Positions 1 through 5,158 of a DNA stretch of 5,158 bases are shown piece by piece. This stretch comes from Deltaproteobacteria bacterium. Lineage in GTDB: Bacteria; Desulfobacterota; SM23-61. Both the position numbers and the translations under genes were made by a program. Under the pieces are notes generated by a model. That model had not been told where the DNA came from. It saw only the letters and a list, made by a program, of their open reading frames with translations, and searched no databases. Position 1 is the stretch's first letter. Each line of letters opens with the position of its first letter. The stretch lies in contig JAOUFX010000293.1 in the NCBI GenBank assembly GCA_029857975.1, positions 1-5,158 on the forward strand. The letters are read 5' to 3'.

Positions 1-88
1 CTGCGGAAACCTCGTCGGCCGTACGCTCCATTCGCTCCAGGCATCGCACGACGGGCTGCTGTGCATACTCCATGCGAGTTGTCATCAT
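1..88 (-). CDS. Unknown cassette gene, 5' end only (cut by window edge)
   Basis: This is the start of a minus-strand reading frame that leaves the window at its left edge; about 28 codons are visible. Two adjacent ATG codons are possible starts (88-86 and 85-83). A strong Shine-Dalgarno sequence, GGAAGGAG at 100-93, is 4 nt from the first ATG and 7 nt from the second, so the second fits better. The visible peptide begins MTTRMEYAQQ and continues with Arg/Glu-rich, probably helical sequence; I do not recognise the family. The gene starts 26-29 nt after the R' box of the attC at 114-171, where the first gene of a new integron cassette is expected. The frame has no stop up to the edge. Function unknown. 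Confidence 0.6.
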   Translation of the reverse strand, partial: MMTTRMEYAQQPVVRCLERMERTADEVSA

Positions 89-92
89 TCCA

Positions 93-100
93 CTCCTTCC
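93..100 (-). promoter_or_regulatory. Ribosome binding site of the truncated cassette gene
   Basis: Minus-strand GGAAGGAG is a near-perfect anti-16S match. Its spacing favours the second of two tandem ATG codons (7 nt) over the first (4 nt). It lies just inside the new cassette, after the attC at 114-171. Confidence 0.6.
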
Positions 101-113
101 GATGGGGAAGTCC

Positions 114-171
114 GTCCAACGGCTAAGGGTGAGCAGCACGGTTTTATCGTGACTGCCTCACCCGGTTATAC
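114..171 (-). other. attC site of the FRG cassette (58 bp)
   Basis: Read on the minus strand, the site opens with R'' GTATAAC (171-165) and closes with R' GTTGGAC (120-114), a full match to GTTRRRY. The arms GGGTGAG-CAG-CACG and CGTG-CTG-CTCACCC pair perfectly except for an extra G and an extra T in the 5' arm. These are the extrahelical bases that set attC orientation, and the first lies 8 nt after R'' as in the 1078 and 4491 sites. The loop is short. R'' differs at one position from the complement of the FRG cassette's own R' (GTTAGAC). Cleavage is expected after the G of R', so the next cassette begins at 119. Confidence 0.88.
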
Positions 172-180
172 GTTATCCGA

Positions 181-1035
181 TTATACTTGCTTCAATTTTT
201 CCAGACCCTGTTTTGGCAAGTCCTTAAGAATCAGGGATTTCGTATAAAGTGATTGAGCAAATCCTTCCAACCCAGGAAAGAGCGTTGCCCTATTGATGCC
301 CATTCTATAGAGTCTGCGGAGAAAGTCATGCCAGCATCCCGGATCAATAATGAACTTTTTAATAAGATCGATATAGTTTGGTATCACTCTCATGTTTTCC
401 TCAAAGGTCGAGGTCACATCCCCAGGCGCACGGAACAAACCTTGTTGGATGGTAAGGCGTTCATTTAACTTTATAGGGTTTGCAGGATAAACAAAAGGAA
501 TCTTGGGTTCCATAAAGAGATTGCGGAAGGGTTCCTCGTCTCTTTCCTTACTGTATTCATCGAGCATCTTCTGACCATCAGGAAGTTTATGAACAATATA
601 CTCGTCAGCTGCATTTTTTAGTTTAGTTACATTAAATGCCCATACAACACCACAGTCTTTCGCCTTTTCTATCCCGAAGAAAAGGGCAAAAAAGAATGAG
701 TAACTGAAATCAACTAACCTAGTTGGGGTTCCGTAATGACGAAGAAGAGAAAGCCACTCCAAAGTATATCCTTTAGAAGGTGGTGGGTATCCAGCATAAA
801 GGTGGTACCGCCGAGCAAAGTCGCGGATCAGCTTAACCTCCAGGTCCTCAATCGCATTACCGGTTAAGCGGAGATTGCTGCAGTGGCGTTCGAGGGTCGT
901 CGCTGGGAATTTGCATGTGTTCTGCCCACGGAAGGCCCACTCATCGTGCCCCTCAAAGCTCGCCTCCACGTCAACCAGCTCTTCCCACCTTTTGATCCTA
1001 ATGCTCGGAATGGAAGGATCGTGGACCAAGGCCAT
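181..1035 (-). CDS. FRG-domain protein (cassette gene)
   Basis: This 284-aa soluble protein carries the FRG domain, named for a Phe-Arg-Gly motif seen here as FRGQ at residues 35-38. Other family-like blocks are LLRHYGTPTRLVDF (97-110), followed by the hydrophobic SFFFALFFG (113-121), NERLTIQQGLF (191-201), and a C-terminal block around RLYRMGINRATLFPGLEG (241-258). These resemble the usual FRG pattern of FRGQ, then HYG.PTRLLDW, then a Q.G.F segment. FRG proteins are widespread accessory genes of unsettled biochemical activity, often near mobile or defence loci. The ATG is preceded by AGGAG (1047-1043) at 7 nt spacing. The gene fills most of its cassette (1083-120), its stop lying 9 bp before the attC R'' box. 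No signal peptide or membrane helix is seen. A phage-defence or toxin-like role is inference only. Confidence 0.85.
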   Translation of the reverse strand: MALVHDPSIPSIRIKRWEELVDVEASFEGHDEWAFRGQNTCKFPATTLERHCSNLRLTGNAIEDLEVKLIRDFARRYHLYAGYPPPSKGYTLEWLSLLRHYGTPTRLVDFSYSFFFALFFGIEKAKDCGVVWAFNVTKLKNAADEYIVHKLPDGQKMLDEYSKERDEEPFRNLFMEPKIPFVYPANPIKLNERLTIQQGLFRAPGDVTSTFEENMRVIPNYIDLIKKFIIDPGCWHDFLRRLYRMGINRATLFPGLEGFAQSLYTKSLILKDLPKQGLEKLKQV

Positions 1036-1042
1036 CTGGCAA

Positions 1043-1047
1043 CTCCT
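1043..1047 (-). promoter_or_regulatory. Ribosome binding site of the FRG gene
   Basis: AGGAG on the minus strand, 7 nt before the ATG at 1035, supports the chosen start. It lies within the 48 bp between the cassette border and the gene, so the cassette brings its own translation signal. Confidence 0.6.
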
Positions 1048-1077
1048 AAATGTTCATGTAGATATACAACATACTGC

Positions 1078-1199
1078 GTCTAACACCCCGCATCAGCCGC
1101 TCGCGCGGCGTCCAATGATGACTCGCTCAAAAACCAACACAGTATAATAAAAGACTCGGTCAACGTGGATCGCGAGTCGGCTGCATGCGGTTGTTCGGC
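1078..1199 (-). other. attC site of the racemase cassette (122 bp)
   Basis: On the minus strand, R'' is GCCGAAC (1199-1193) and R' is GTTAGAC (1084-1078), a full GTTRRRY match. The 5' arm ACCGCAT-(G)-CAGCCG-(A)-CTCGCG pairs with CGCGAG-CGGCTG-ATGCGG. The two extra bases, G and A, are six bases apart, and the first is 8 nt after R''. This is the textbook attC layout and shows that cassettes run right to left. R'' is the exact complement of GTTCGGC at 1956-1950, the border at which the racemase cassette begins, tying both ends to one cassette. The roughly 65-nt variable loop is AT-rich in the middle. Confidence 0.9.
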
Positions 1200-1212
1200 G
1201 GCACGCCGATAC

Positions 1213-1908
1213 TTACTCTGCCAGTGCATATTCTGTTGCCGCCACCGCATGAATCCTGGTCGTATCAAATAGAGGCACGCGACAGTCCCCAGGACGAACC
1301 AACAATCCAATTTCCGTACAGCCCAAGATAACCCCCTCTGCACCGGCCTGAACTAACTGTTCAATAATCTCGAGATATTGTTTTTTCGATCCGGGCTGGA
1401 TTTCCCCCCTGACCAATTCGTCGTAAATCACCCGATGCACTATCGCCCGCGCTGGGACATCTGGAACTATTACATCCAGGCCGTGTTTTTCAGTCAGCCG
1501 GCTTGTGTAAAAATCTTCTTCCATCGTGAAACGAGTCCCGAGTAAACCGACTTTATGAAGACCATCCCCCTTTATCTGTTGGGCTGTGGCATCGGCAATA
1601 TGAAGAAGGGGAATACGGACTTGCGCTTGGATGGCTTCGGCCACTTTATGCATCGTGTTTGTACAGAGAATAAAAAAATTTGCCCCGCCACTTTCTAGGC
1701 GTTGAGCAGCTTCAATCAGCACTTGAGCGGCTTCTTGCCATTTCCCTTGATGTTGTAAGGTTTCAATCTCTGCAAAATCAACGGAATACATGAGGTTTTT
1801 TGCTGAATGAAGTCCGCCCAGTTTCGCTTTAACGGTTTCATTGATAATCCGATAATACTCAATGGAAGACTCCCAACTCATTCCACCAATCAGACCAATA
1901 GTTTTCAC
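1213..1908 (-). CDS. Aspartate/glutamate racemase family protein (YgeA-like amino-acid racemase)
   Basis: This 231-aa cytoplasmic enzyme belongs to the PLP-independent Asp/Glu racemase superfamily, which interconverts L- and D-amino acids with two cysteines acting as acid/base. Features seen: N-terminal IGLIGGMSWESS (4-15), the first catalytic motif CTNTMHK with Cys82, KVGLLGTRFTMEEDFY (119-134), and the second catalytic motif GCTEIGLL with Cys197. Length and motif spacing fit the YgeA/RacX-type enzymes, which act on several amino acids, so the substrate is not fixed by sequence. The start is GTG at 1908, with AGAGG (1919-1915) 6 nt upstream. The gene lies alone in its cassette (1955-1084), and its stop is 13 bp before the attC. 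It appears intact. A plausible role is making D-amino acids for cell wall or signalling, or using them as nutrients. Confidence 0.9.
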   Translation of the reverse strand: MKTIGLIGGMSWESSIEYYRIINETVKAKLGGLHSAKNLMYSVDFAEIETLQHQGKWQEAAQVLIEAAQRLESGGANFFILCTNTMHKVAEAIQAQVRIPLLHIADATAQQIKGDGLHKVGLLGTRFTMEEDFYTSRLTEKHGLDVIVPDVPARAIVHRVIYDELVRGEIQPGSKKQYLEIIEQLVQAGAEGVILGCTEIGLLVRPGDCRVPLFDTTRIHAVAATEYALAE

Positions 1909-1914
1909 AATTTA

Positions 1915-1919
1915 CCTCT
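1915..1919 (-). promoter_or_regulatory. Ribosome binding site supporting the GTG start of the racemase
   Basis: Minus-strand AGAGG lies 6 nt before GTG at 1908. The conserved MKTIGLIGG N-terminus begins at this GTG, and no upstream ATG gives a better fit. Confidence 0.55.
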
Positions 1920-1929
1920 TGAAATTGAT

Positions 1930-2110
1930 ATGATGGCGCTAAAGTAGCCGCCGAACGGGGCTGCGGATCAGCGGCGGGCGGAAGCCCGAGCTTGCTTGGG
2001 TGGGCGACCGTCCGCTGCAGCCGCTTGATGGCCGGCGCGCAGCGCCGGACAGAAAGCGGATGTCAATCCGCAGCCCCGATGGCGCGGCGCTAAGCGTCCG
2101 CGCCATCGCC
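1930..2110. repeat. GC-rich nested palindromic element (three-way junction fold)
   Basis: This stretch is much richer in GC than the flanking genes and is built of nested inverted repeats. The outer 12-bp arms at 1957-1968 and 2066-2077 are exact complements. Between them lie two arms. Arm A pairs 1969-1974 with 2012-2017, continues as 1975-1977 with 2008-2010, and is capped by 1985-1991/1994-2000. Arm B pairs 2021-2026 with 2054-2059 and encloses a 7-bp hairpin, 2032-2038/2042-2048, with a 3-nt loop. An alternative hairpin, 2056-2061/2066-2071, would compete with the outer stem. Next to it is another hairpin with exact 10-bp arms, 2078-2087 and 2098-2107. GATGGCGC occurs at 1932 and again at 2078. 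It could be the variable part of a very large attC or a MITE-like insert. It is not a tRNA. Confidence 0.7.
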
Positions 2111-2173
2111 AAAATAACCGGCGCAAATGGAGCATAAGCGCAATTTGCGTCTGTGTTGATTTGATTGTTAAAC
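1950..2173 (-). other. Atypical attC region between Cys-rich and racemase cassettes
   Basis: R'' on the minus strand is GTTTAAC (2173-2167), the exact complement of GTTAAAC (2611-2605) that opens the same cassette. R' is GTTCGGC (1956-1950), the exact complement of the R'' ending the racemase cassette. Both borders are therefore well supported although R' departs from GTTRRRY at one base. The bases after R'' look like a 5' attC arm, but no complementary 3' arm is found; the GC-rich palindromic element lies there instead. At 224 bp the site is much longer than the others here. It may be an unusually large attC or one whose right half was replaced by an insertion. Confidence 0.55.
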
Positions 2174-2178
2174 ACCGT

Positions 2179-2262
2179 TTACTTGAATAGATCCAGGATA
2201 CAAATCACTGCATTTGCCAACAACGCTAGGGCAGCTATCCAGAGCCCAATACGGGTATACAT
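2179..2262 (-). CDS. Candidate 27-aa single-helix membrane microprotein
   Basis: A small ATG-started frame encodes a 27-residue peptide: a short polar start (MYTR), a continuous hydrophobic stretch at about residues 6-23 (GLWIAALALLANAVICIL), and a charged end (DLFK). This is the pattern of a single transmembrane helix with a positive N-terminal flank. It starts 27 nt after the stop of the 102-aa gene and ends 5 nt before the R'' box at 2173, so it fills the rest of the cassette, as cassette genes tend to. No clear Shine-Dalgarno sequence sits at good spacing, so translation may depend on coupling to the upstream gene, or the frame may be chance. I do not recognise the family; small hydrophobic proteins are common in cassette arrays. 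Function unknown. Confidence 0.45.
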   Translation of the reverse strand: MYTRIGLWIAALALLANAVICILDLFK

Positions 2263-2289
2263 ATTTGACTTTTTAAGTTACCTATTCTC

Positions 2290-2598
2290 CTACTCTCTCT
2301 TTTGAAGTTCCTTCGCTGCCTCAAATAGCATGCCCGTATCATGAGGAAAAAAGAAACATTTGTTTCGCCTACTGACTTCATTGACCCTGTATAACCTCTG
2401 CTCTTTCCCGGGATCTACCATTTCATCCCAAACTCCCATATGACACTTCAATGAATAACGGTCTGTAACAAAGTCTATATCCCCTTGCCCAGCCTTTTTT
2501 CTCTCCCCCTTTGAAAGGGAAAAGATAAGAAATCGATTAGTATTTTCTTCCCTGTATTCTTTTGCCAAGAAGTGGCAATTCTTACATATGTATTTCAT
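2290..2598 (-). CDS. Conserved hypothetical Cys-rich protein (cassette gene)
   Basis: This 102-aa soluble, basic protein has a CxxC at its N-terminus (Cys5, Cys8), then Cys52-His53 in KCHMGVWDE (51-59), Cys81 in RRNKCFFFP (78-85), and a conserved-looking tail, HDTGMLFEAAKELQKRE (86-102). The layout suggests a small metal-binding or zinc-ribbon-like fold, which is inference; the biochemical role is unknown. The pattern YxCKxCHFLxxE, GVWDE, CFF, GML.aAKeLQ.RE fits a family I believe recurs in environmental and cassette genomes. The start is fixed: the codon before the ATG is TAA, and the ATG lies only 6 nt after the R' box at 2605-2611. There is no Shine-Dalgarno sequence in that gap. The candidate microprotein follows in the same cassette. 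Confidence 0.75.
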   Translation of the reverse strand: MKYICKNCHFLAKEYREENTNRFLIFSLSKGERKKAGQGDIDFVTDRYSLKCHMGVWDEMVDPGKEQRLYRVNEVSRRNKCFFFPHDTGMLFEAAKELQKRE

Positions 2599-2604
2599 TT
2601 AGGT

Positions 2605-2674
2605 GTTTAACGTCACGGTTTAGTTTCGTTTTGCCTACCACGGTCAAAACGTAAATTGCAAGCGATTTTTCGGC
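2605..2674 (-). other. attC site of the holin-like cassette (70 bp)
   Basis: On the minus strand, R' is GTTAAAC (2611-2605), a full GTTRRRY match, and R'' is GCCGAAA (2674-2668), one base from the complement of the cassette's opening GTTCGGC at 2984-2978. The arms AATTT-(A)-CGTTTTG-(A)-CC and GG-CAAAACG-AAACT pair with one mismatch and two extra A bases in the 5' arm, around a 6-nt loop. Spacers of 10 nt separate stem and R boxes on both sides, giving a symmetric site. The spacer is longer than in the canonical sites of this window. Confidence 0.75.
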
Positions 2675-2689
2675 ACCTCTTTCTCCTGT

Positions 2690-2950
2690 CTACTTGGACT
2701 CAGCGGAACCTGTTATTTTGTTATAGAGCCACGCAAATACTACGCCGCCAATCAGGCCATCGAAAAACGCCCATATCAACCCTATTACGCTGCCCATTGG
2801 AGAGATCGCGTAACCACGGTACAGCCTGCCGATGAGTGTAGGTTCCCCTGTAGACCCGTCAAATGCGATGATCCACCAGGTAAGGAAAAATAATCCTAGT
2901 CCCCAGACTATGCCGCAAGTCAGTGCGAATGCCTTAATGTTGAGCTTCAT
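2690..2950 (-). CDS. Small two-helix membrane protein, phage-holin-like
   Basis: This 86-aa inner-membrane protein has two predicted transmembrane helices, at about residues 5-29 and 52-76. They are joined by a short polar loop with DGSTGEPTLIGRLYRGY (31-47) and followed by a short charged tail. The GEPTLIGRxYRGYxISPxGSxIGLIW core and FFDGLIGG motif match proteins often labelled 'bacteriophage holin' in genome annotations. That name rests on size and topology, and lysis activity has not to my knowledge been shown for such chromosomal copies. There is no neighbouring endolysin. The start is ATG at 2950, with AAGGA about 11 nt upstream. The gene lies alone in its cassette (2983-2611). A role in membrane or envelope homeostasis is equally possible. 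Confidence 0.75.
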   Translation of the reverse strand: MKLNIKAFALTCGIVWGLGLFFLTWWIIAFDGSTGEPTLIGRLYRGYAISPMGSVIGLIWAFFDGLIGGVVFAWLYNKITGSAESK

Positions 2951-2977
2951 GTGTATCTTTTCCTTTCTTTGTTTCGA

Positions 2978-3087
2978 GCCGAACTATGCATTATTTGGAA
3001 TAAGATCCGACGCTCGCCCACTGTCGGCATAAGAAGCCAGCGTCATTTTGATGGGACGGGAAAGTAGCTCCATTATCTCCGTTGTTA
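2978..3087 (-). other. Possible attC at the left end of the gene-poor region
   Basis: The minus-strand R' GTTCGGC (2984-2978) is well supported as the border opening the holin-like cassette, because its complement nearly matches the R'' at 2674-2668. The rest is weak. TAACAAC at 3087-3081 could be R''. A 6-bp stem GACGCT/AGCGTC (minus 3043-3038 and 3013-3008) lies inside, and outer arms around TAATGGAG and TTTGGAATAA pair only partly. The canonical pattern of extra bases is not clear. Confidence 0.35.
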
Positions 3088-3387
3088 TAAGAAATCAGCA
3101 AGCGCCTATTCCTCTTTTCAAATTCTTCTCCCCCGATCCACTTTACCAAGAAGGCTTTGAACGGATTTATTTCTTACCTTGACAACCTGTCCATATCTGT
3201 GTTGTAAAGCGGGCGCTACTTAATAATCACAACCCAAAAATGAGATTAAAAAGTTCAGCAGCACTTCCCACTCATGAATCGTAACGGAAATATCCGCGCT
3301 GCGTCCCGTCTTCACAACTCACCCCGTCATACCGTGCAACCCGTTGTTCGCATTTCTATCCAGAGATCTCATGTTCTTCGTCGACGA
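2985..3387. other. Gene-poor stretch with no confident gene
   Basis: About 400 bp separate the DUF3175 stop from the holin-like cassette. It holds one strong bulged hairpin (3201-3216 with 3301-3318), a probable R'' box at 3352-3346, and the right part of a possible attC near 2978. Two short minus-strand frames are visible. One is a GTG-started 31-codon frame, 3315-3220 (ending FLGCDY), which lies in the hairpin loop. The other is a 59-codon frame, 3170-2991, that has AAGG 6 nt before an ATA codon, no ATG, and runs through the putative attC. Neither is annotated as a gene. The stretch may be one short ORF-less cassette (about 3185-2984) or a decayed one. Confidence 0.5.
3180..3352 (-). other. 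Probable attC region of the DUF3175 cassette, large and irregular
   Basis: R'' is probably TGCGAAC (3352-3346), one base from the complement of GTTCGCT at 3718-3712, where this cassette opens. Further in, the minus-strand arm GTTGTGAAG-(A)-CGGG-(A)-CGC (3318-3301) pairs with GCG-CCCG-CTTTACAAC (3216-3201), with one G-T pair and two extra A bases in the 5' arm, giving the same polarity as the other sites. The enclosed loop is 84 nt. The R' is unclear; GTTGTCA (3186-3180) is the best candidate but a poor consensus match. The spacing between R'' and stem is longer than usual, so exact limits are uncertain. Confidence 0.45.
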
Positions 3388-3693
3388 TCACTTATGCCGG
3401 CTCTTCCCATATAGTGTGCGCAGTTCTTCCTTGGCCTGCTCCAAAATACGCAACTGGTCCCTATCTAGGCTCCTGCCGGCTCGGTTGATATAGAATACGA
3501 GCATCGACATGGCGGAGCGAAATGGCGGGGCTTTGCGGCGGGTACTGCTGTCCGCCGACTGCTTGAGCGACAATGCAATCTTCTTGGGATCCGCCCAGGT
3601 GAATACCCCCTCCTCCAGATCCAGCGCATTGCTCTCTTTGGTAACCCTTCCAGACCAACGCGTACCCGCTGATGATTTGGACCTCGTCGCCAT
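3388..3693 (-). CDS. DUF3175 domain protein (cassette gene)
   Basis: This small basic protein of 101 aa matches the DUF3175 pattern along nearly its whole length: RWSGRVTKESNALDLEEGVF (12-31), the DPKKIALSLKQSA segment (35-47), the RRKAPPFRSAMSMLVFYINRAG core (52-73), and LEQAKEELRTLYG (84-96). The family is found in many proteobacteria, often as single genes, and has no known activity. The N-terminus (about 1-11) is a short, Lys/Arg/Ser-rich, probably disordered lead. The start is ATG at 3693, with GAGGGG (3705-3700) 6 nt upstream, and both lie inside the cassette, whose opening border is 3718-3712. Overlapping frames on both strands here are shadows of this gene. The length is normal for the family and the gene appears intact. 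Confidence 0.82.
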   Translation of the reverse strand: MATRSKSSAGTRWSGRVTKESNALDLEEGVFTWADPKKIALSLKQSADSSTRRKAPPFRSAMSMLVFYINRAGRSLDRDQLRILEQAKEELRTLYGKSRHK

Positions 3694-3711
3694 TCACTAC
3701 CCCTCATCAGA

Positions 3712-3774
3712 AGCGAACGCTCGGCATGAGCGGGAGTCGGCTTTTCGGCGATCCGCTCCTTGCCGTTGTTAAGG
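3712..3774 (-). other. attC site of the DUF5677-like cassette (63 bp)
   Basis: The minus-strand R'' is CCTTAAC (3774-3768), the exact complement of GTTAAGG (4497-4491) that opens the same cassette. R' is GTTCGCT (3718-3712). The arms AACGGCAA-(G)-GAGCGG-(A)-TCG and CGA..CCGCTC-TGCCG pair with small mismatches, and the extra G and A are six bases apart, the first 8 nt after R'', as in the best sites here. The TAA stop of the cassette gene is embedded in R'', so gene and attC overlap. Confidence 0.8.
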
Positions 3775-4470
3775 ATTCCTCGTCAGGCGTTTTTCGAACA
3801 TCTGAAGGCTTGAAATCTCCAAAATTTGCCCCGTCCTGCTAATTCCTCTGTACTTATCAATGTAGTTTTCGGGACCTAACTTGAAATGATCTACGGTAAT
3901 TGTGAGCAGGAAGTCGAGAACCTGATCGGAGTAGGTTAAACATTGGCTGAATATTGCAGGATGATAGTTCCGACCGACACCGTAGAACTTGGGACATATG
4001 TTCTTTGCCCATTTCCCATATGGGTGTGCCCACTCGCTTAGTTCGTTCCATAGTTTCTGCAAATTGCTTTTCTCGTCACTATCCAAGGTGTCGATGGATG
4101 AAATCCTATCTCTCATGCTACCATTTTCCATGGTGGCTATTCCTACCAACAGTTCAAAAACACTTCTGAGGAGAATCATCGCACCAAGATAATCCGTTGC
4201 TCCAATCAAGAGCAATGCACTCTGATAGACCTTTCCCAAGTAACCCAGAAAAAGTGTCTTTTCTCTCGTAGCTTCAATGGTCTCGCCCGCTTCAACTTGT
4301 TTTTTTCCGAATTCAACGATTAGCTGCTCGGACAGTCTCAGAAGAACAAAAGCGTTTGACAGCTTGAGCGAAATCATAGGCTCATGACGAATGGAATCGA
4401 TAAACGGGGTTACGAACTCTCTCCTCAGGACAAGTTCAATCTGCTTCTTTGGAACCCATTCTTCTGTCAT
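3769..4470 (-). CDS. Hypothetical helical protein, DUF5677-like
   Basis: This 233-aa, probably soluble and all-helical protein has no signal peptide. The central part, YLGYLGK-type helices at about 72-92 followed by ATDYLGAMILLRSVFELLVGI (91-111), resembles the helix pair with an R-S-x-F-E-L core seen in DUF5677 and related proteins. The block LWNELSEWAHPYGKW (140-154) matches the later L-S-x-[YW]-x-H-P element. These helical families have been compared with HEPN-type folds, but no clean RxxxxH RNase motif is seen, so catalytic activity is not claimed. The start is ATG at 4470, with only a weak GGACAG upstream. The stop TAA lies inside the attC R'' box. The gene occupies its cassette (4496-3718) alone. 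A stress, toxin or abortive-infection role is conceivable but unproven. Confidence 0.6.
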   Translation of the reverse strand: MTEEWVPKKQIELVLRREFVTPFIDSIRHEPMISLKLSNAFVLLRLSEQLIVEFGKKQVEAGETIEATREKTLFLGYLGKVYQSALLLIGATDYLGAMILLRSVFELLVGIATMENGSMRDRISSIDTLDSDEKSNLQKLWNELSEWAHPYGKWAKNICPKFYGVGRNYHPAIFSQCLTYSDQVLDFLLTITVDHFKLGPENYIDKYRGISRTGQILEISSLQMFEKRLTRNP

Positions 4471-4490
4471 GGTCTGTCCGAATTCTGTGT

Positions 4491-4596
4491 CCTTAACGTT
4501 ATGGATAACCAGCGGGCCTGATACCTTTCAAACTAGCACCGCCCTTAACGGTAAGATCCGCGAATAATTCCCATCTGGTTCATCCGTAGGTTATAT
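4491..4596 (-). other. attC site of the methyltransferase cassette (106 bp)
   Basis: The minus-strand R'' is ATATAAC (4596-4590) and R' is GTTAAGG (4497-4491). The 5' arm TACGGAT-(G)-AACCAG-(A)-TGGG pairs with CCCG-CTGGTT-ATCCATA, leaving G and A unpaired six bases apart, the first 8 nt after R''. This is the classic attC signature and the same polarity as the site at 1078-1199. The variable loop of about 50 nt may fold further. R' departs from GTTRRRY only in its last base. Confidence 0.85.
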
Positions 4597-4624
4597 GAGC
4601 AATTATGGTAAATATCAAAAGCAT

Positions 4625-5158
4625 TTATGTGACATGCCGTTTCTGCATCAGGCACCTCCAGGCTCTGGGTGGATTTGGACGATTAGATCCGAAATGGCTG
4701 GATGTAAGTGAAAGAACCTTAAAATAAGGCTCCACTGCCAAGACTATATCTCCTGCAGTCCGCTGCGGTGGACCAGGACCTTGGCGATGCTCATCAGCGT
4801 TGCCAACGATTGTTAGCCACAGGCCGGCTTCCTCCAAATGAGTAGCGACATTTTGGGCAAACCTTCTTCGATCATTTTCAGAACTGAATGAGTGAAAACA
4901 GCCTCTGTCAAATACAAAACCAAAAGGAGCACCTTCAATTTTGTTCTTAAGAAAATCAACAAGCATGAAATCGCATTCAACGTTGGCTTTAGAAGCTTTT
5001 TCTTTTGCCTTCTCTAAAGCAATCTCCGAAGTGTCAGTACCAATAACCTGAAAGCGGTTCTGGGCAAGCCATATGGAATTGTCTCCGGTTCCACAGCCAA
5101 TATCTAAGACTTTGCAGCTCAGAATAGGTTTTTGGGTCACAGCTTCAATAAGATTGAA
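4625..5158 (-). CDS. Class I SAM-dependent methyltransferase, 5' end outside window
   Basis: The visible 177 residues form most of a Rossmann-fold methyltransferase that uses S-adenosylmethionine. Counting from the GTG at 5140, motif I VLDIGCGTGDN is at 11-21, the acidic residue after strand 2 is in VIGTDTS (32-38, Asp36), a VDF motif-II-like element is at 61-63, and FVFDRGCFHSF (75-85) is the strand-4 region. Near the end are GPGPPQRT (121-128) and RAWRCLMQKR (159-168). The arrangement resembles TehB/thiopurine-methyltransferase-like small enzymes, but the substrate cannot be assigned. The frame stays open upstream of the GTG to the window edge, with residues FNLIEA typical of the helix before motif I. 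The true start is therefore outside and the GTG is not the start. The gene is followed by the attC at 4491-4596. Confidence 0.85.
   Translation of the reverse strand, partial: FNLIEAVTQKPILSCKVLDIGCGTGDNSIWLAQNRFQVIGTDTSEIALEKAKEKASKANVECDFMLVDFLKNKIEGAPFGFVFDRGCFHSFSSENDRRRFAQNVATHLEEAGLWLTIVGNADEHRQGPGPPQRTAGDIVLAVEPYFKVLSLTSSHFGSNRPNPPRAWRCLMQKRHVT

What the first reader, a model, noticed from the sequence alone, without database searches (positions are those of the whole stretch)
1..5158. Integron cassette array without integrase, at least eight cassettes in one orientation
Several imperfect palindromes with RYYYAAC...GTTRRRY ends and unpaired bases in the minus-strand 5' arm separate unrelated minus-strand genes. 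The best ones (1078, 4491, 3712) share an extra G, six paired bases, then an extra A, with the first extra base 8 nt after R''. This is the defining architecture of integron attC sites.
Basis: partly seen in the sequence, partly recalled or inferred. Interest (0 to 1): 0.75.

Follow-up and report, generated by a model that had tools for sequence, protein, structure and literature searches.

The report
Environmental integron gene cassette array

Summary
The finding holds in substance. Two covariance models, built only from attC sites near integron-integrase genes in other genomes, find attC sites at five of seven gene boundaries, all on the minus strand like the genes: 1078-1199, 4491-4596, 1950-2033 with 2101-2173 (a compound site), 3712-3774 and, weakly (E 0.1-0.2), 114-171. 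The best plus-strand hit has E 0.26. The extra bases lie on the R''-L'' arm, as attC requires.

The 233-aa gene (3769-4470) gives independent support: its DNA recurs in four genome contigs, and in all five copies homology starts exactly at CGTTAAGG, the R' core, after unrelated DNA. So this gene has moved as a cassette.

Corrections: 'at least eight cassettes' is too many. No attC better than chance lies between the 102-, 86- and 101-aa genes, so attC sites delimit four whole and two partial units. 'Without integrase' is untestable here: the window ends inside a gene on the side where intI and attI would lie.

Verdict: a new example of a well-known kind of element. Interest is low.

The parts
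1..88 (-). start of a cassette gene that runs off the left end (29 codons seen)
   Evidence: read by eye; too short for the ORF list
114..178 (-). probable attC behind the FRG gene; unusual spacing of the two extra bases (three pairs between them)
   Evidence: R1 12.4 bits E 0.097, R2 10.9 bits E 0.2, both for 114-171; arm fold 0 of 300 shuffles; 65-nt fold z -4.09
181..1035 (-). cassette gene, 284-aa FRG-domain protein, related to the PADLOC candidate defence family PDC-S15
   Evidence: PF08867 E 7.5e-15; PDC-S15 E 1.5e-34
1078..1199 (-). attC, best site, extra G, six pairs, extra A
   Evidence: R1 36.9 bits E 3.7e-8; R2 39.5 bits E 1.8e-9; fold z -3.74
1213..1908 (-). cassette gene, aspartate/glutamate racemase family
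   Evidence: PF01177 E 7.7e-45; TIGR00035 249 bits, cut-off 93.1
1950..2033 (-). attC-like half of a compound site; R' box GTTCGGC intact, R'' box altered
   Evidence: R2 29.2 bits E 1.4e-6; whole 1950-2173 folds with z -7.69
2101..2173 (-). attC-like half of the compound site; R'' box GTTTAAC intact, R' box altered
   Evidence: R2 29.1 bits E 1.6e-6
2179..2262 (-). 27-aa hydrophobic frame; corresponds to the C-terminal tail of the 102-aa frame's family, separated from it by two in-frame stops
2290..2598 (-). 102-aa frame, truncated member of a family of mostly about 137 aa
   Evidence: 47 homologues; alignment
2690..2950 (-). 86-aa hydrophobic protein, NCBIfam NF037947 (named bacteriophage holin); no clear attC on either side
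   Evidence: 90.6 bits, cut-off 70; boundaries not better than shuffles
3388..3693 (-). 101-aa DUF3175 protein
   Evidence: PF11373 E 2.9e-41
3712..3774 (-). attC of the 233-aa cassette
   Evidence: R2 19.7 bits E 6.7e-4; R1 17.5 bits E 0.0045 for 3716-3770; fold z -2.86
3769..4470 (-). cassette gene, 233-aa helical protein of unknown function, found as a cassette in other genomes
4491..4596 (-). attC behind the methyltransferase gene; its R' core is the point where homology of the 233-aa cassette begins
   Evidence: R2 31.7 bits E 2.9e-7; junction; against: free fold z -0.62
4625..5158 (-). cassette gene, methyltransferase, open at the right end of the window
   Evidence: PF13649 E 8.4e-18

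Best explanation
The window is the inside of an integron cassette array with genes and attC sites on the minus strand. A cassette is a gene followed by an attC site. The attC strand opposite the gene folds into a hairpin in which two extra-helical bases of the R''-L'' arm mark the strand. An integron integrase (IntI) cuts it in the R' core (G^TTRRRY) and joins it to attI or another attC, so genes enter, leave and change order in one orientation. Shown here: attC structure and strand at five boundaries, and natural junctions at the R' core for one cassette. Inferred from established integron biology: that an IntI acts on this array, that intI and attI, if present, lie beyond position 5158, and that the host is an anaerobe such as a member of Desulfobacterota.
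For: Models trained without the window find attC on the minus strand at five of seven boundaries. Extra bases lie on the R''-L'' arm with six pairs between them at 1078, 4491, 1950 and, with a mismatch, 3712. Unrelated gene families stand side by side in one orientation. The 233-aa gene joins different upstream DNA exactly at CGTTAAGG in five of five copies, has further attC nearby on its own strand in three of four relatives compared, and lies beside an integron-integrase gene, split over two frames, in L018.
Against: Two of seven boundaries show no attC better than chance. The site at 114 is weak by both models. 4491-4596 does not take the attC shape in an unconstrained fold. No intI or attI is in the window. 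Relatives of the 86-aa gene in 5 of 297 genomes have no attC in the roughly 3 kb held around each. L001 carries the 233-aa gene with no attC that R2 detects.
Confidence: 0.96

Rival explanations
1. A CALIN, a cluster of attC sites whose integrase was lost or never near; the cassettes would be moved, if at all, by an IntI elsewhere.
For: No integrase in the window. Mutually dissimilar attC sites (identity 0.50, shuffled 0.48) and a gene cut by two stops would fit an ageing or mixed cluster. G003 has three attC and no TIGR02249 match over the cut-off.
Against: The window ends inside a cassette gene on the side where intI would lie, so absence is not observed. PMC9024848 (passages) warns that fragmented assemblies overstate CALINs. 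Integrase genes are common in the phylum of one relative (108 of 297 genomes).
Confidence: 0.3
2. The stretch 2174-3711, with the 102-, 86- and 101-aa genes, is not three cassettes: it is one multi-gene cassette, or ordinary DNA inserted into the array, or cassettes whose attC have decayed.
For: No significant attC inside it. The 86-aa family occurs outside attC contexts in 5 of 5 fetched loci. A 99% identical 102-aa protein and an identical 233-aa protein both have a 2930-base contig as their longest, which suggests, but does not show, that the stretch recurs as a block.
Against: A GTTRRRY-like box stands shortly before the start of the 102-aa gene (2605-2611) and of the 86-aa gene (2973-2979), as before the other genes, though such boxes are common by chance (33 with at most one mismatch on this strand of the window).
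Confidence: 0.6
3. The palindromes are transcription terminators or other hairpins at gene ends, not attC.
For: Hairpins at gene ends are common; some near-perfect palindromes in the training loci (L065) looked like this and were left out.
Against: The box, extra-base and spacing pattern and significant model scores on one strand only; a gene unit joined to unrelated DNA at the R' core in five copies.
Confidence: 0.02

Closest known systems
Integron cassette arrays of environmental bacteria (chromosomal integrons; metagenomic cassette surveys such as PMC7370490, passages read)
   Same: Tandem genes in one orientation with attC of the same architecture as integrase-linked attC of other genomes.
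   Different: No intI or attI seen; two boundaries without attC; one compound attC; attC less alike (0.50) than in the five integrase-linked arrays compared (0.63 to 0.90).
CALIN (cluster of attC sites lacking an integron integrase; PMC9024848, passages read)
   Same: At least two attC sites and no integrase in the sequence at hand.
   Different: The end where the integrase would lie is missing, so the label cannot be given.
T-N6-G / T-N6-C attC sites (PMC3053210, abstract and passages read)
   Same: 1078, 4491, 1950 and, with a mismatch, 3712 read G-N6-A on the gene strand, so T-N6-C on the folded strand, a type that IntI1 excises efficiently according to that abstract.
   Different: 114-178 reads G-N3-T on the gene strand, an unusual spacing.

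Membership tests
attC site | RYYYAAC and GTTRRRY boxes at the ends | tested here: met
   Met, with mismatches, at 1078, 4491, 3712 and 114; in the compound site 1950-2173 only the outer two boxes are intact
attC site | imperfect palindrome with conserved secondary structure | tested here: met
   covariance models at E below 0.001 for five hits, 114-171 only E 0.2
attC site | two or three extra-helical bases on the R''-L'' arm | tested here: met
   alignments; definition from PMC2727003
attC site | length about 57 to 142 nt | tested here: met
   63, 65, 106 and 122 nt for four sites; the compound site is 224 nt as a whole, 84 and 73 nt by halves
attC site | recombination by an IntI at R', strand opposite the gene | not testable with these tools
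   only natural junctions at the R' core of one cassette were seen
integron cassette array | successive genes in one orientation, each followed by attC on the same strand | tested here: inconclusive
   met at 5 of 7 boundaries, not at 2
integron cassette array | gene unit exchangeable at the R' core | tested here: met
   one of the cassettes, in five copies; other cassettes not tested
complete integron | intI gene next to attI and the array | tested here: inconclusive
   none in the window, but the window ends inside a cassette gene on that side
CALIN | attC cluster with no integrase nearby | tested here: inconclusive
   flank not held
HEPN-fold proteins (for the 233-aa gene) | HEPN fold | tested here: inconclusive
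   [not shown]

The most novel reading that the evidence does not exclude
The compound site 1950-2173, whose outer core boxes (GTTTAAC, GTTCGGC) are intact while both inner ones are altered, works as one very large attC made of two fused hairpins around an orf-less 67-nt stretch, and with it the 1.5-kb stretch 2174-3711 with three genes moves as a single multi-gene cassette.
Probability: 0.15. Interest if true: 0.35.

Novelty: new member of a known kind. Interest (0 to 1): 0.18.

Why it matters
It adds one natural cassette array to a class already surveyed in metagenomes (13,397 unique reading frames in PMC7370490, passages read). The mildly useful result is that a 233-aa gene family of unknown function is shown, by junctions at the R' core, to travel as a cassette in Deltaproteobacteria MAGs, a Desulfobacterales MAG and a contig binned as Dehalococcoidia. 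If the compound site were one working site, it would test how large and branched an attC can be.

Tried and rejected
Nucleotide comparison with plasmids: 209 records match at 60-80% identity, the 20 listed all within the racemase gene, none covering 80% of the window. Phages: 4 records, two over the racemase and two over the DUF3175 gene. Viral contigs for the 233-aa family: none of 64 candidates. Rfam: no hit. FRG gene: 0 of 297 genomes at E up to 1e-30. DUF3175 gene: 0 of 6 genomes; neither search had a positive control. 233-aa gene: 1 of 297 genomes, the one already known.

Box-and-arm-fold scans were used to find candidates and rejected as proof of orientation, since palindromes score on both strands; such a scan also misses 3712-3774 on the minus strand because that R' has two mismatches. 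Terminator reading: rejected. Reading 1950-2173 as a 73-nt attC with an insert of about 150 nt before R': joined flanks fold no better than the site as it stands (-9.6 against -9.8 kcal/mol on the gene strand; -11.1 on the other strand); left open. PDB sequence search for the 233-aa family: none at E up to 1; Pfam over its 29 aligned members: no family over its cut-off for the window's own protein, DUF5677 weakly in 6 of 29.

Training choice: the 16 sites of R1 were picked by hand from the candidates, from 8 of the 20 fetched loci; two further sites of L057, the candidates of L052, L056, L062, L063 and L065, and everything from L001-L006 were left out. R2 uses all 39 hits of R1 at E up to 0.005, from 13 of the 20 loci. 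The 20 loci were themselves chosen from a longer list by integrase score and room for flanks.

Full report
WHAT WAS CHECKED. The window (5158 bases) holds eight minus-strand frames of interest (the first by eye): a partial one at the left end, an FRG-domain protein (181-1035), an aspartate/glutamate racemase (1213-1908), a 102-aa frame (2290-2598), an 86-aa hydrophobic protein (2690-2950), a DUF3175 protein (3388-3693), a 233-aa protein (3769-4470) and a methyltransferase open at the right end (4625-5158). Those with a family name belong to unrelated families. G+C in 300-base windows varies from 0.39 to 0.59. No whole genome is held for the window. The 233-aa family has 79 homologues, two of them named Deltaproteobacteria by a source; the 86-aa family has 1885.

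AN INDEPENDENT attC MODEL. Rfam gave nothing, so I built models from sequence that owes nothing to the window. Integron-integrase genes (TIGR02249) score over the curated cut-off in 108 of 297 genomes of the phylum of G004, the genome of a Deltaproteobacteria MAG, and in 0 of 14 control genomes. Twenty neighbourhoods were fetched. Sixteen attC from 8 of these 20 loci, picked by hand, were aligned. With the R, L and extra-base structure written on, 89.6% of cells pair against 70.4% in shuffles, with 67 two-sided changes against 23.9, and sliding the partners by one to three columns lowers pairing to 26-43%. Model R1 found 39 sites at E up to 0.005 in 13 of the 20 loci, from which R2 was built.

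RESULT ON THE WINDOW. With filters off, R2 gives on the minus strand: 1078-1199 (39.5 bits, E 1.8e-9), 4491-4596 (31.7, 2.9e-7), 1950-2033 (29.2, 1.4e-6), 2101-2173 (29.1, 1.6e-6), 3712-3774 (19.7, 6.7e-4), 4801-4818 (11.4, 0.14; a small palindrome inside the methyltransferase gene, taken as chance) and 114-171 (10.9, 0.2). The best plus-strand hit is 10.5 bits, E 0.26. R1 ranks the six attC hits alike. On the folded strand this is T-N6-C, a type that IntI1 excises efficiently according to the abstract of PMC3053210 (abstract and passages). That extra bases lie on the R''-L'' arm is stated in PMC2727003 (passages).

WHERE IT FALLS SHORT. Per boundary, the best box-bounded arm fold beats all 300 shuffles at boundaries 1, 2 and 7, on both strands. 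It does not between the 102- and 86-aa genes (53 of 300 as good) or between the 86-aa and DUF3175 genes (183 of 300). Boundaries 3 and 6 gave no scorable pair on the minus strand, so they rest on the models. Neither model finds a significant site at the two failing boundaries. So attC sites delimit four whole units (FRG; racemase; the stretch 2174-3711 with three genes; the 233-aa gene) and two partial ones. The site at the end of the 2174-3711 stretch is compound: two attC-like hairpins, outer boxes intact, inner boxes altered; its 224 nt fold with z -7.69. Whether this is two tandem sites, one interrupted site or one large site is open. 4491-4596 takes the attC shape when its arms are folded together, but free folding of the whole prefers another shape (z -0.62).

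THE 233-aa GENE AS A TEST CASE. Its family was sought in one genome for each of 84,980 species and found in six contigs. By blastn, window 3760-4498 (739 bases, 78-79% identity) matches L001, L002 and L003 over its whole length, and L018 in two pieces (75 and 80%), because an insertion of about 1.4 kb splits the gene there; L005 and L006 match only as protein. In all five sequences homology begins at CGTTAAGG, and the 60 bases before it look unrelated; at the other end it runs through the R'' box into a hairpin. That is where IntI cuts and joins. Near the relatives, R2 finds at E up to 1 three attC in L002, three in L003 and four in L018, on the relative's strand (two of the L018 hits are weak, E 0.066 and 0.91, and one E 0.019), and none in L001, L005, L006 and L017. 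In L001 the hairpin behind the gene looks decayed (by eye). In L018 the relative lies beside a TIGR02249 integrase gene that is split over two frames. L003 comes from a 288-kb contig binned as Dehalococcoidia. Chloroflexota are already listed among integron-bearing phyla in PMC8618304 (passage read).

CONDITION OF THE ARRAY. The six attC hits of the window are hardly more alike (mean identity 0.50) than shuffled ones (0.48); five integrase-linked arrays score 0.63 to 0.90. The cassettes were therefore probably collected from different sources. The 102-aa frame belongs to a family of mostly about 137 aa; relative to it the window has two in-frame stops, which leave a hydrophobic tail as a separate 27-aa frame. 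A 99% identical protein on other contigs is also 102 aa long, so the stops are unlikely to be an error of this contig alone.

MECHANISM. Shown: attC structure, strand and spacing at five boundaries (one of them weak); natural junctions at R' for one cassette. Inferred from established integron biology: folding of the strand opposite the genes, cleavage by IntI at R', insertion at attI with the gene pointing away from it. Not tested: any recombination, any expression, the presence of intI.

NOVELTY. Cassette arrays, CALINs and metagenomic attC surveys are well established (PMC9024848, PMC7370490, PMC8618304; passages read). This is a new example of a known kind, of low interest beyond the cassette genes themselves.

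Noticed in passing
[not shown]
   Followed up: partly
window 181-1035: The FRG-domain protein matches the PADLOC candidate defence family PDC-S15 (E 1.5e-34); a possible defence gene carried as a cassette.
   Followed up: no
window 2179-2598: A gene of a family of mostly about 137 aa is cut by two in-frame stops into a 102-aa frame and a 27-aa hydrophobic frame; a 99% identical protein on other contigs is also 102 aa.
   Followed up: partly
L018 1301-4749: A relative of the 233-aa cassette gene is interrupted by about 1.4 kb that holds transposase-like frames (by eye), beside an integron-integrase gene split over two frames.
   Followed up: partly
L003 7427-10753: Three attC hits around the 233-aa relative in a 288-kb contig binned as Dehalococcoidia, whose genome has no TIGR02249 match over the cut-off; a candidate CALIN in Chloroflexota.
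   Followed up: partly
L002 772-2265: A 497-aa frame that looks like a group II intron reverse transcriptase (by eye, not searched) stands upstream of attC-flanked cassettes.
   Followed up: no
genomes: Integron-integrase genes score over the TIGR02249 cut-off in 108 of 297 genomes of one Deltaproteobacteria phylum, several genomes with more than one match.
   Followed up: no
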